The notes below the pieces were generated by a model, which had not been told where the DNA came from, ran no database searches, and saw only the letters and a program-made list of their open reading frames with translations. Source: Sphingobium naphthae (GTDB lineage Bacteria > Pseudomonadota > Alphaproteobacteria > Sphingomonadales > Sphingomonadaceae). From it: a DNA stretch of 64,000 nt. The stretch is taken from positions 1 through 64,000 of the forward strand of contig NZ_JAJGNO010000007.1 in assembly GCF_020782235.1 (NCBI RefSeq), given 5' to 3'. The translations under genes and the position numbers were made by a program. Every line of letters begins with the position of its first letter. Positions within the stretch are counted from its first letter, which is position 1. Positions 3,755 through 5,989 of the stretch are shown in pieces.

Positions 3755-5989
3755 TCAGCCGGCAATCTTCGAAAAGTCAGCGACATTGTGCACTGCGTCA
3801 CGCACCCGCGCCAGCAGCGCGAGGCGACTCGCGCGCTTGGCCGGATCGGCGTCATTGACCGTGACGCTGTCGAAGAAGGAGTCGATCGGCGCCCGCAGCG
3901 ACGCCAGCGCCGCCATCGCTCCCTCGAAATCCTCCGCCGCCACAGCCGCCGCCGCGCGCGGCTCGGCGGCGTCGAGCGCGGTGGTCAGTTCAGCCTCGGC
4001 GGGCTCGGGCGTGTAGGACAGAGCTGTCGGGGCTGCCGCGCCCCCTTCCTTCTTGAGGATGTTGGCGGCGCGCTTGTAGCCGGCGAGCAGGTTCGCCCCG
4101 TCGTCGGTCGCGATGAAGGACTGGAGCGCATGGACGCGGGCGAGCAGGCGGACGAGATCATCCTCCCCGCCGAGCGCGAACACCGCGTCGATCAGGTCGT
4201 GGCGGACCCCGGCTTCCTTTTGCTGGACCTTGAGGCGGTCGGCGAAGAACCAAACGAGTCCAGCTTCACCAGATGCAATCTTGTCTAACAGCCTTCCATC
4301 AAGATCATCGCCCAACTGCTTTCCTGCAGCAACGACATCCGTCATTCTTTCCAACGTGTCATCTAGACTGAACCGTAAAAAATTATCTAGAACCAAGCGG
4401 ATAACAGCCAAAGCCGCACGGCGAAGTGCGAAGGGATCTTTGGAACCGGTTGGCTTTTCGTCAATGGCGAAGAAGCACATCAACGTATCCAGCTTATCCG
4501 CCAGCGACACGGCAACCGTTACCGGCGCGATCGGCACATCATCGCTCTGCCCGACCGGCTTGTAATGATCGCGGATCGCGTCGGCGACGGCATCGGGCAG
4601 GCCTTCGGCGCGCGCATAATAGCCGCCCATGACGCCCTGCAATTCGGGGAACTCGCCGACCATTTCGGTGACGAGATCGGCCTTGGCCAGACGCGCCGCC
4701 TGTTCGGCGAGGTCGGCCAGTTCCTCCCCGGAACGGGGAGGGGGACCGCCGGCCGCAGGCCGGTGGTGGAGGGGGCTATCGGCCGGCACTACGGACAAGG
4801 ACGGCGCGCCAAGAGGCGTCCCCCCTCCACCACTCGCTTCGCTCGCGGTCCCCCTCCCCGTGCCGGGGAGGATTATCCCCTCCTCCACCAGCCACCGGGC
4901 CAGCTTCGCCACCCGCTCGACCTTGTCGGCCACGGTGCCCAGCTTCTCGTGGAAGGTGATGCGCTCCAGCTTCCTGGCGTGATCCGCAAGGCTCGTCTTG
5001 CGGTCCTGCTCCCAGAAGAAGCGCGCATCGCTCAGCCGCGCGGCCAGCACCTTGCGGTTGCCGGCGATGATCGCCGCGCCGCCATCCTTCGCCTCGATAT
5101 TGGCGGTGCAGATGAAGGCCGGGGCCAGCTTGCCCGCCGCATCGCGCAGCACGAAATATTTCTGGTTGATCCGCAGGGTTAGCTGAATGACTTCAGGCGG
5201 TACCTCAAGAAAGGCCGGATCGAAATCGCCCAGCAGCGGCACCGGCCATTCGGTCAGGCCCGCATTCTCCGCCACCAGCCCCTTGTCCTCGATGACGCTA
5301 TAGCCGTGCGCCGCCGCCGCTTCGTCGGCCTTTGCCGCGATGATCGCCTGCCGCTCCTGATGGCTGACGATCACATGGCAGGCGCGCAGCTTCTCCACAT
5401 AGTCGTCCGCCCCGCCGATCGTGATTTCGCCGGGATGATGGAAGCGATGGCCCAGCGTCGCATAGCCCGAGCGCACGCCCTCGATCTCCATGTCCACCAG
5501 CTGGTCGCCCAGGATCGCGACGATGCCCTTTAAGGGCCGCACCCAGCGCAGGCTTTCGGTCGTCTGGCTGGCGACGCCCCAGCGCATCGACTTGGGCCAG
5601 GGAAAGGCGCGGATGACGGCGGGCACGGCCTCGGCCAGCACCGCGGCCGTGGCGCGGCCGGGCTTGTTGACATGCCCGAACCAGACGCCGTCGCGCTCCT
5701 CCAGCTGATCCTGCGTCAGCCCCGTCTTGCGCAGGAAGCCTTCCAGCGCCTGCGGCGGCGCACTGGTGCGCGGTCCCTTATATTCCTCGCTCACCGCCGC
5801 CGTCTCCAGCGGCAGTCCCCGCGCGATCAGCGCCAGCCGGCGCGGCGTCACGAAGCTGTCGATGGCCGCGGGCTTCAGGCCCGCCTTGGCGAGTTCCTCG
5901 GCAAACAGCCGCGCAAGGTCCTCGGACGCCTTCACCTGCATGCGCGCCGGAATCTCCTCGCAGCGCAGTTCAAGGAGGAAGTCAGTCAT
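3755..5989 (-). CDS. glyS: Glycyl-tRNA synthetase beta subunit, with an in-frame repeat insertion
   Basis: 744 residues; partner of GlyQ in the bacterial alpha2beta2 glycyl-tRNA synthetase. The start is the ATG at 5989 (MTDFLLELRCEEIPARM, the family N-terminus); upstream codons fall in a repeat and are not coding. Family motifs include ELRCEEIPARM, VTPRRL, KSMRWG, LTEWPVPLLG and MGGYYA. The protein is about 50 residues longer than the typical 690, and the excess is residues about 373-423, encoded by a palindromic repeat (4723-4872) that keeps the frame. The insert is rich in Gly, Pro and Ser and sits between two predicted helices, just before the AKADLVTEMVGEF segment, so it probably forms a surface loop. 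About 250 bp of the 3' part (4230-4500) looks lower in GC than the rest of the gene. Confidence 0.95.
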   Translation of the reverse strand: MTDFLLELRCEEIPARMQVKASEDLARLFAEELAKAGLKPAAIDSFVTPRRLALIARGLPLETAAVSEEYKGPRTSAPPQALEGFLRKTGLTQDQLEERDGVWFGHVNKPGRATAAVLAEAVPAVIRAFPWPKSMRWGVASQTTESLRWVRPLKGIVAILGDQLVDMEIEGVRSGYATLGHRFHHPGEITIGGADDYVEKLRACHVIVSHQERQAIIAAKADEAAAAHGYSVIEDKGLVAENAGLTEWPVPLLGDFDPAFLEVPPEVIQLTLRINQKYFVLRDAAGKLAPAFICTANIEAKDGGAAIIAGNRKVLAARLSDARFFWEQDRKTSLADHARKLERITFHEKLGTVADKVERVAKLARWLVEEGIILPGTGRGTASEASGGGGTPLGAPSLSVVPADSPLHHRPAAGGPPPRSGEELADLAEQAARLAKADLVTEMVGEFPELQGVMGGYYARAEGLPDAVADAIRDHYKPVGQSDDVPIAPVTVAVSLADKLDTLMCFFAIDEKPTGSKDPFALRRAALAVIRLVLDNFLRFSLDDTLERMTDVVAAGKQLGDDLDGRLLDKIASGEAGLVWFFADRLKVQQKEAGVRHDLIDAVFALGGEDDLVRLLARVHALQSFIATDDGANLLAGYKRAANILKKEGGAAAPTALSYTPEPAEAELTTALDAAEPRAAAAVAAEDFEGAMAALASLRAPIDSFFDSVTVNDADPAKRASRLALLARVRDAVHNVADFSKIAG
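4723..4872. repeat. Palindromic repeat element inserted in frame in glyS
   Basis: The ends are CCTCCCCGG and CCGGGGAGG, with further nested arms: GGGGACCGC near the left end mirrors GCGGTCCCC near the right end, and GTGGTGGAGGGGG mirrors CCCCCTCCACCAC. The element is about 150 bp (50 codons) and has no stop in the glyS frame. It has the form of the mobile palindromic units found between genes in sphingomonads and recalls the protein-coding Rickettsia palindromic elements. No other copy is visible in this window. Confidence 0.8.

What the first reader, a model, noticed from the sequence alone, without database searches (positions are those of the whole stretch)
4723..4872. Palindromic repeat inside the glyS reading frame
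The nested inverted repeat adds about 50 codons without a stop, placed between helices before the AKADL motif. The predicted protein is about 50 residues longer than the family norm, and the excess equals the element length. This resembles Rickettsia palindromic elements, known to lie within proteins, but here in a sphingomonad and in an essential synthetase.
Basis: partly seen in the sequence, partly recalled or inferred. Interest (0 to 1): 0.75.

Follow-up and report, generated by a model that had tools for sequence, protein, structure and literature searches.

The report
Palindromic DNA inserted inside essential enzyme
A repeated, palindromic piece of mobile-looking DNA sits in frame inside an essential protein-synthesis gene of a Sphingobium bacterium, and across its relatives the same spot in that gene is filled, emptied and refilled by many different pieces of this sort, showing how selfish DNA can keep remodelling core proteins.

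Summary
Window 4722-4872 is a nested palindrome (28-nt arms, 96% complementary) in frame in glyS. It lengthens a helix-helix loop of the GlyRS beta subunit by 47 residues; the model leaves 380-416 unstructured. Related copies lie at 8 other places in the genome.

Of 90 Sphingobium GlyS compared, 47 have this loop filled by palindromic repeats of about nine types, among them CGTC-type REP dimers; 43 have it short. A second GlyS loop is filled in 39 of 90. On a tree of the N-terminal part the two loops need at least 38 and 30 changes of state. Other core proteins carry such inserts: TruB, LeuRS, IleRS, UvrA, E2, methylmalonyl-CoA mutase. Inserts evolve with dN/dS 0.55-0.64, against 0.12-0.14 in the N-terminal part.

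Best reading: selfish REP-like palindromes land in permissive loops; only in-frame, open copies survive, are translated as disordered loops, decay and are replaced. Intragenic REPs were described in 2013, also in sphingomonad tRNA synthetases and TruB, so the kind is known; I found no report of the repeated refilling of the same loops. The mover is unknown.

The parts
3755..5989 (-). glyS, glycyl-tRNA synthetase beta subunit, 744 aa
   Evidence: ORF; Pfam tRNA_synt_2f E 1e-181 and DALR_1; E. coli GlyRS beta (7yse) E 5e-106
4722..4872 (-). palindromic element (type C) inserted in frame; codes for residues 373-423
   Evidence: related copies elsewhere in the genome
4845..4872 (-). outer arm, 5' in the sense of glyS; contains hairpin 4853-4871
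   Evidence: inverted repeats I1 and I14
4722..4749 (-). outer arm, 3' in the sense of glyS; contains hairpin 4723-4741
   Evidence: inverted repeats I1 and I13
4763..4833 (-). inner inverted repeat 4763-4775 / 4821-4833 and the centre
   Evidence: I4; fold
4709..4720 (-). right flank L-A-D-L (residues 424-427); Leu is at this place in 47 of 47 filled Sphingobium alleles
4001..4033 (-). site 3 loop (residues 653-663), without a palindrome here but filled by REP-like elements in 39 of 90 Sphingobium GlyS
6001..6110 (.). intergenic palindrome of another type in the glyQ-glyS gap
   Evidence: its 14-nt ends match the ends of the site-3 fillers of L030 and L017 only weakly (E 0.011), and no filler matched it at E 1e-3

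Best explanation
The segment is a REP-like palindromic repeat that inserted into a loop between two helices of the GlyRS beta subunit and is kept because it is in frame, free of stops, and lies where the fold tolerates a long disordered loop. It is transcribed and translated as part of GlyS. Shown by sequence: the palindrome, the repeat family, the short alleles, the open frame, weak constraint on the inserted peptides, and repeated turnover at the same loop with different palindromes; predicted: the disorder. Inferred: that new copies arrive by copying of genomic palindromes or their neighbours, and that selection removes out-of-frame arrivals. Unknown: the enzyme that moves them.
For: Short loop in 43 of 90 genus members and in 21 of 21 outgroups. 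Related element at 8 other places in the genome and in 58 of 94 genus genomes at E <= 1e-5. The same C element sits in this loop in three different reading phases in eight genomes, which suggests at least three entries. Other fillers are CGTC-type dimers and other palindromes. Close rows of the N-terminal tree carry different types, e.g. L029 (B) and L037 (A1), L028 (B) and L032 (D). [quoted passage not shown] AlphaFold model, mean pLDDT 88.0: residues 380-416 are below 50 and the helix resumes at 419. The frame used is open in the 46 site-1 and 39 site-3 inserts of over 60 nt examined, although on average only 3.35 and 2.87 of the 6 frames of an insert are open. One insert (L072) carries 32 nt identical to the 3' end of the tRNA-Asn gene of its own genome next to a REP dimer.
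Against: No protein evidence that the insert stays in mature GlyS. No transposase is linked to the element. The filled alleles all share Leu before the next helix whatever the filler, which simple insertion into the short allele does not produce and which hints at an old filled allele whose filler is exchanged, or at convergent selection. Near-identical A1 fillers (99% over 80 nt, L037 and L026) occur in genes 81-89% alike in the blocks around them, and 43% in the hypervariable stretch before site 2, so some kind of exchange between species is likely. At site 3 the palindrome signal is weaker: 26 of 58 inserts beat all 60 shuffles, 16 of the 58 being a native non-palindromic segment.
Confidence: 0.87

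Rival explanations
1. The insert is present in DNA but not in protein: it is removed from the mRNA or skipped by the ribosome, like an intron or a bypassed hairpin.
For: A very stable hairpin inside an essential gene is the sort of thing known bypass elements contain (recalled).
Against: Every filled allele that I could read across the loop keeps the frame and lacks stops, although only about half of the frames of an insert are open. A removed segment would need neither. The one exception, L151, has an assembly gap (NN) in the palindrome; several other loci end at a contig end inside the loop and cannot be judged.
Confidence: 0.04
2. The loop is an ordinary fast-evolving linker, and its palindromes are chance in GC-rich DNA.
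For: The inserted peptides evolve fast, and loops of 17 residues without a match to any filler exist (L095, L099, L125).
Against: Inverted-repeat score above all 60 shuffles in 37 of 51 site-1 inserts of 48 nt or more in the genus and in 23 of 30 named ones. The A1 type has matches in 77 of 94 genomes and the C type in 58 of 94.
Confidence: 0.02
3. Allelic exchange rather than fresh insertion: filled and empty GlyS segments circulate among species by homologous recombination, carrying the palindromes along.
For: States need 38 changes on the N-terminal tree; Leu in the right flank is common to all fillers; some fillers are more alike than the genes around them.
Against: The state of site 1 needs 39-42 changes on trees of each of five separate blocks of the gene, so no neighbouring block travels with it; spacers left of near-identical A1 fillers differ. 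Exchange would have to be of very short tracts.
Confidence: 0.25
4. The inserts are kept because they help: a variable disordered loop on GlyS and TruB protects against something that binds these proteins, or tunes them.
For: The same loops are refilled many times, filled states of sites 1 and 3 go together (odds ratio 8.5, p 6e-6, not corrected for relatedness), and a third site is hypervariable.
Against: dN/dS of inserts is below 1 and nearer neutral than adaptive; 43 of 90 genus members have the short loop; several unrelated proteins carry inserts.
Confidence: 0.1

Closest known systems
CGTC-tagged REPs and intragenic REPs (PMC3733652, BMC Genomics 2013)
   Same: Short palindromes, CGTC ones mostly as head-to-head dimers, mostly intergenic, some within ORFs. 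The paper names tRNA synthetases in X. oryzae, E. litoralis and S. alaskensis, TruB, helicases and UvrA among carriers, and S. chlorophenolicum and S. wittichii as hosts of CGTC families. Seen: passages, sections 6 and 15.
   Different: The window's element has no CGTC or GTAG tag and a 3-nt loop. The paper's main text does not name GlyS, and its supplement, which lists the proteins, was not readable here. It notes one same-site case (recB of two Xanthomonas); here the same loops change filler tens of times.
Rickettsia palindromic elements (RPE)
   Same: Palindromes of about 150 bp in frame inside housekeeping genes; TruB is a shared target (passages of PMC3733652 and of the review PMC10969869; the 2002 paper was not held).
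   Different: Another order of Alphaproteobacteria; the element sequences were not compared here. Fillers here belong to many types at one site.
REPIN / RAYT systems (definition recalled; listing)
   Same: Two palindromic units in inverted order, many copies per genome.
   Different: Elements persist in genomes with no Y1 transposase match: 43 of the 58 Sphingobium genomes examined have none, among them G092 and G093 with 16 element match rows each.
ERIC and other MITEs with intragenic copies
   Same: Non-autonomous repeats that can sit inside ORFs (passage of PMC10969869).
   Different: No terminal-repeat or target-duplication evidence was obtained here.

Membership tests
CGTC-tagged REP (for the window's element) | CGTC (or TGTC, CCTC) at the end of the unit, stem of 8-9 bp with complementary A/T in the first two positions, loop of 4-5 nt | tested here: not met
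   Unit reads CCTCCCCG-GCA-CGGGGAGG then GGGACC: first two stem pairs are C-G, 3-nt loop, no CGTC; a CCTC is present but inside the stem. Features
CGTC-tagged REP (for the A1 fillers of relatives) | CGTC tag, 8-bp stem, 4-nt loop, head-to-head dimer | tested here: met
   CGTC-ACCCCAGC-GAAG-GCTGGGGT ... ATGCCAGC-CTTC-GCTGGCAT-GACG in L037, by eye; in the first unit only the first of the two stem positions is A/T. Matches in 77 of 94 genomes
Rickettsia palindromic element | multi-copy palindrome in frame inside unrelated protein genes | tested here: met
   glyS and methylmalonyl-CoA mutase in this genome; LeuRS, TruB, E2 with the C type in relatives
Rickettsia palindromic element | sequence membership in an RPE family | not tested
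   No RPE sequence was compared
REPIN with RAYT | two REP units in inverted orientation | tested here: met
REPIN with RAYT | a RAYT transposase in the host genome | tested here: inconclusive
   Own genome has one Y1_Tnp match, a 148-aa frame, E 4e-41, which looks like IS200 TnpA by size and score (recalled criteria); 43 of 58 genus genomes, several with many elements, have no match
Intragenic repeat (insertion, not native linker) | short allele in relatives and copies elsewhere | tested here: met
Known RNA family | Rfam match above the gathering score | tested here: not met
   No match reached its gathering score in 4500-6200

The most novel reading that the evidence does not exclude
In sphingomonads a handful of loops in core translation and repair proteins (two in GlyS, one in TruB, others in LeuRS, IleRS and UvrA) act as exchangeable sockets: palindromic repeats of many kinds are swapped in and out of them by a mechanism that needs no RAYT and can pick up neighbouring DNA such as a tRNA end, and the resulting loop diversity is maintained by selection, for instance against a phage or toxin factor that binds these proteins.
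Probability: 0.13. Interest if true: 0.85.

Novelty: new variant of a known kind. Interest (0 to 1): 0.62.

Why it matters
REPs are defined as extragenic, yet here they repeatedly enter essential enzymes, in the same loops, and the proteins live with it. With about one change of filler for every two or three genomes sampled (38 changes on 90 rows), relatives offer a natural series of dozens of insertion experiments in GlyS alone, and more in TruB. That makes directly testable how new protein segments arise from non-coding repeats, how REPs move without a recognisable transposase, and why certain core proteins are hit again and again. It also warns that length differences of up to 178 residues in GlyS of one genus need not be annotation errors.

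Tried and rejected
Removal from RNA or ribosome bypass: rejected because the alleles that could be read across the loop keep the frame. Assembly artefact: rejected because the same C filler in the same phase is found in G033 and in Sphingomonas adhaesiva (L189). RAYT mobilisation: not supported. Known RNA family: none. Travel of the filler with a neighbouring block of glyS: site-1 states need 39-42 changes on trees of five blocks, so no block explains them. A block-wise comparison of chosen pairs showed uneven divergence but no raised flank identity at the near-identical fillers L037 and L026. Target duplication was not determined: short and filled alleles differ on the right flank, so no clean junction pair was found. 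Insertion next to a CGTC in the short allele (codons ATC GTC) is suggested by L016 but CGTC is too common to test. Single-linkage clustering of fillers merged types and was replaced by assignment to hand-picked seeds; type names A1 to G are mine, and a few assignments (L070, L072, L079 to A3) rest on 26-31 nt.

Rows left out: of 94 Sphingobium genomes, G023 had no glyS match and G075 has glyS split over contigs, leaving 92 loci. L071 was missed by my start pattern (its frame is 830 aa and its loop is filled with a D-like palindrome, by eye); L131 ends at a contig end. Trees and state counts use the remaining 90. In one search the site-3 F hits of L072 and L118 were weak and were counted as not filled. 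L090 is counted as short though its 13-residue loop ends in L-A-D-L and looks like a remnant of an A1 filler. The 46 and 39 inserts are those over 60 nt; the 46 include the partial L131, and the 39 are not the same set as the 39 (L072 in; L084 out). Of the 80 named loci, 63 were parsed; 17 were not (contig ends or start pattern), of which most were looked at later without entering counts.

Failed or wasted steps: wrong start pattern; the locus was on the antisense strand, so it repeated the glyS search; the listed matches are all consistent with one glyS per genome, the list being capped; scripts stopped at an error after printing part of their output.

Full report
What is there. The glyS gene runs on the minus strand, 3755-5989, 744 codons from the ATG at 5989, and is a normal GlyRS beta subunit by Pfam and by likeness to the solved E. 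coli protein (7yse). Inside it, 4722-4872 is a nested palindrome: outer arms of 28 nt, 96% complementary, inner arms of 13 nt, and a small hairpin within each outer arm. The sense strand folds at -117.4 kcal/mol, z -7.1 against shuffles. It codes for residues 373-423.

Where it lies in the protein. The E. coli alignment breaks between E. coli residues 378 and 386, inside the HD domain, which a structure paper places at residues 341-540 (PMC8464048, passages). An AlphaFold model of the window's GlyS with 35 aligned sequences (mean pLDDT 88.0) has a helix at 353-369, no secondary structure at 370-418, pLDDT under 50 at 380-416, and the next helix at 419-434. The insert is therefore predicted to be a disordered loop between two helices, the second being the AKADL helix.

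It is a repeat. In the same genome, related DNA lies at 8 other places at E <= 1.1e-4. One of these is between the catalytic and B12-binding domain matches of methylmalonyl-CoA mutase (L008) and one is in the N-terminal region of a DEAD-box helicase frame, where it may precede the true start (L004). Spanning frames at three others (L002, L006, L007) had no Pfam match; spanning frames at the remaining three (L265-L267) were not put to Pfam. In the genus, 58 of 94 genomes have matches at E <= 1e-5. The genus is Sphingobium: contig lengths of G034, G087 and G017 equal those of S. quisquiliarum, S. ummariense and S. faniae records.

Short alleles. I collected glyS from 92 of 94 Sphingobium genomes and compared 90. 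GlyS length runs from 667 to 845 aa (one of the 90 is cut at a contig end). At the window's site (site 1) the loop is short in 43 of 90 (8-17 residues; 30 have 8), typically EGIV-KGADADLAEQ, and filled in 47 (17-57 residues). Of the 80 named loci, 63 were read: 30 of 42 sphingomonads (Sphingobium, Sphingomonas, Novosphingobium, Sphingopyxis and others) have 16 or more residues there, and 0 of 21 other Alphaproteobacteria. Of those 30, 27 match a filler seed, two of them weakly. The filled state is seen only in sphingomonads here.

Many different fillers. The 47 fillers fall into types that I named A1 (15), A2 (9), A3 (6), E (5), B (4), C (3, the window's), D (3), F (1), G (1); the A types are akin to one another. 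A1 looks like a head-to-head dimer of CGTC-tagged REPs by the description in PMC3733652 (section 6) and has matches in 77 of 94 genomes at E <= 1e-6. Of 51 site-1 inserts of at least 48 nt, 37 have an inverted-repeat score above all of 60 shuffles; of 30 named ones, 23; of 58 at site 3, 26, where 16 of the 58 are a non-palindromic native segment. Site 3 (window residues 653-663) lies in the anticodon-binding domain, 13 residues after R640, which aligns with E. coli R585, a residue that contacts the anticodon (PMC9908026, passage); it is filled by REP-like palindromes in 39 of 90.

Turnover. On a maximum-likelihood tree of 1,092 N-terminal columns of 90 genes, site 1 needs at least 38 changes of state and site 3 at least 30. 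Shuffled labels need 44.4 on average for site 1 and none of 200 shuffles was as low as 38, so there is some inheritance, but little. Trees from five separate blocks of the gene give 39-42 for site 1. Near rows hold different fillers (L029 B, L037 A1; L028 B, L032 D). The window's C type sits in this loop in three reading phases among eight genomes. Apparent remnants of fillers exist: L090 at site 1, L084 and L118 at site 3. Filled states of the two sites go together (31 both, 35 neither, 24 one only; odds ratio 8.5; p 6e-6, not corrected for relatedness); 9 of the 31 have the same type at both.

Translated, but weakly constrained. Among 46 site-1 and 39 site-3 inserts of over 60 nt, on average only 3.35 and 2.87 of the six frames are open, yet the frame used is open in each, since every GlyS frame runs on through it (one insert is cut by a contig end). 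That is expected if the insert is translated and not if it is spliced or skipped. [quoted passage not shown] The proportion of synonymous differences in the inserts is lower than in the N-terminal part (0.25 against 0.37 at site 1, 0.18 against 0.32 at site 3), so many fillers may be younger than the gene lineages, or exchanged between them.

Results that do not fit a simple insertion story. All 47 filled alleles have Leu at the start of the next helix (46 times L-A, once L-T), whatever the filler, while short alleles mostly have Asp there; 28 of 30 named filled alleles have L-A. Either an old filled allele had its filler exchanged many times, or the longer loop selects for this helix start. 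Fillers of type A1 can be 99% alike over 80 nt in genes 81-89% alike in the blocks on either side, leaving aside the hypervariable stretch before site 2 (L037 and L026), with different spacers to the left. In L072 the insert holds, near its start, 32 nt identical to the 3' end of the tRNA-Asn gene of its own genome, followed by a REP dimer: DNA from elsewhere was copied in along with the palindrome. The tRNA-Asn gene found in that genome is not itself followed by this REP.

Not only GlyS. With the C type, among 33 element loci whose context I examined and 20 spanning frames put to Pfam (11 had no match): LeuRS (L044), the lipoyl/E3-binding linker of 2-oxoacid dehydrogenase E2 (L049, L054), the interdomain linker of TruB (L053, L066), methylmalonyl-CoA mutase (L008), and regions before the first Pfam domain of a DEAD helicase, HisA and UreE, which may be upstream of the true starts (L004, L056, L045). 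With the A1 type, among 16 loci outside glyS: a class I synthetase with the IleRS zinc finger in three genomes (L240, L241, L245), UvrA between two domains (L251) and the N-terminal region of NuoF (L242); most of the other loci have no coding-like frame across the element. For TruB I fetched the 30 best of 94 genomes; 30 of 30 carry linker inserts of several types, judged by eye. These are the best matches to a query that has an insert itself, so the share is biased upwards; genomes without the insert exist, e.g. G088, where the two halves abut.

What moves them. A Y1 transposase search found matches in 15 of 58 Sphingobium genomes including the window's own, where the match looks like IS200 TnpA; 43 of 58 have none although several are rich in elements. 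The mover is unknown.

Prior work. PMC3733652 (passages and sections 6 and 15 seen) reports CGTC REPs in S. chlorophenolicum and S. wittichii, REPs inside ORFs of several species, among them tRNA synthetases in S. alaskensis and E. litoralis, TruB, UvrA and helicases, and one same-site case, recB in two Xanthomonas. It identifies RPE-6 and RPE-4 of Rickettsia with CGTC-1 and CGTC-4. Its supplementary list, which may name GlyS, was not readable here. Searches for palindromes in coding genes, REPs in sphingomonads, GlyS with palindromes or indels, and REPs with TruB or synthetases listed no paper on repeated filling of GlyS; these are listings of open-licence papers only. The kind is thus known; the recurrent refilling of the same loops across a group of bacteria is, as far as these searches go, the new part.

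Verdict. An in-frame REP-like insertion in GlyS, real, translated as far as sequence can tell, one of a long series at the same loop. Interest lies in the series more than in the single insert.

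Noticed in passing
window 4265-4357 (GlyS residues 545-575), with low GC3 from about 4265 to 4475: A third variable site of GlyS: 0 to 99 residues long in 90 Sphingobium GlyS; 72 of 90 have 15 or more residues, and these fall into 53 groups (40 of them single) without similarity detected by blastp; GC is under 0.55 in 55 of 72, and GC3 is about 0.5 against mostly 0.7-0.9 around it. No Pfam domain was found there in the 35 GlyS of alignment A1 apart from two stray weak hits. Palindromes were not tested there. It lies near the end of the HD domain. Unexplained; it could be as interesting as the palindromes.
   Followed up: partly
window 6001-6110: An intergenic palindrome in the gap between glyQ and glyS (arms 6020-6048/6064-6092 and 6001-6015/6096-6110). 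Its 14-nt ends match those of the site-3 fillers of L030 and L017, but only weakly (E 0.011).
   Followed up: partly
window 48842-48929: A copy akin to the A2-type palindrome exactly between two convergent ORFs (ending at 48841 and 48935), the typical REP position.
   Followed up: partly
window 62971-63012: Another short A2-like match at the end of an ORF that looks like purC (name recalled), before a convergent ORF.
   Followed up: no
L072, site-1 insert of GlyS in G032: The insert holds 32 nt of the 3' end of tRNA-Asn, so a tRNA gene fragment is, by sequence, translated within a tRNA synthetase.
   Followed up: partly
L151 (Sphingomonas sp. Leaf20), about locus position 4140; also L131, L152, L154, L161, L174, L177: Assemblies fail in the site-1 palindrome: L151 has NN there, which breaks the GlyS frame, and six other loci end at a contig end inside the filled loop. 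Such hairpins may cause false pseudogene calls.
   Followed up: partly
L130 (G069), GlyS residue 171 region: A 20-residue insert at a further GlyS site, ASPGKVGTGFPSGDAANKNV, absent from the other rows of the alignment.
   Followed up: no
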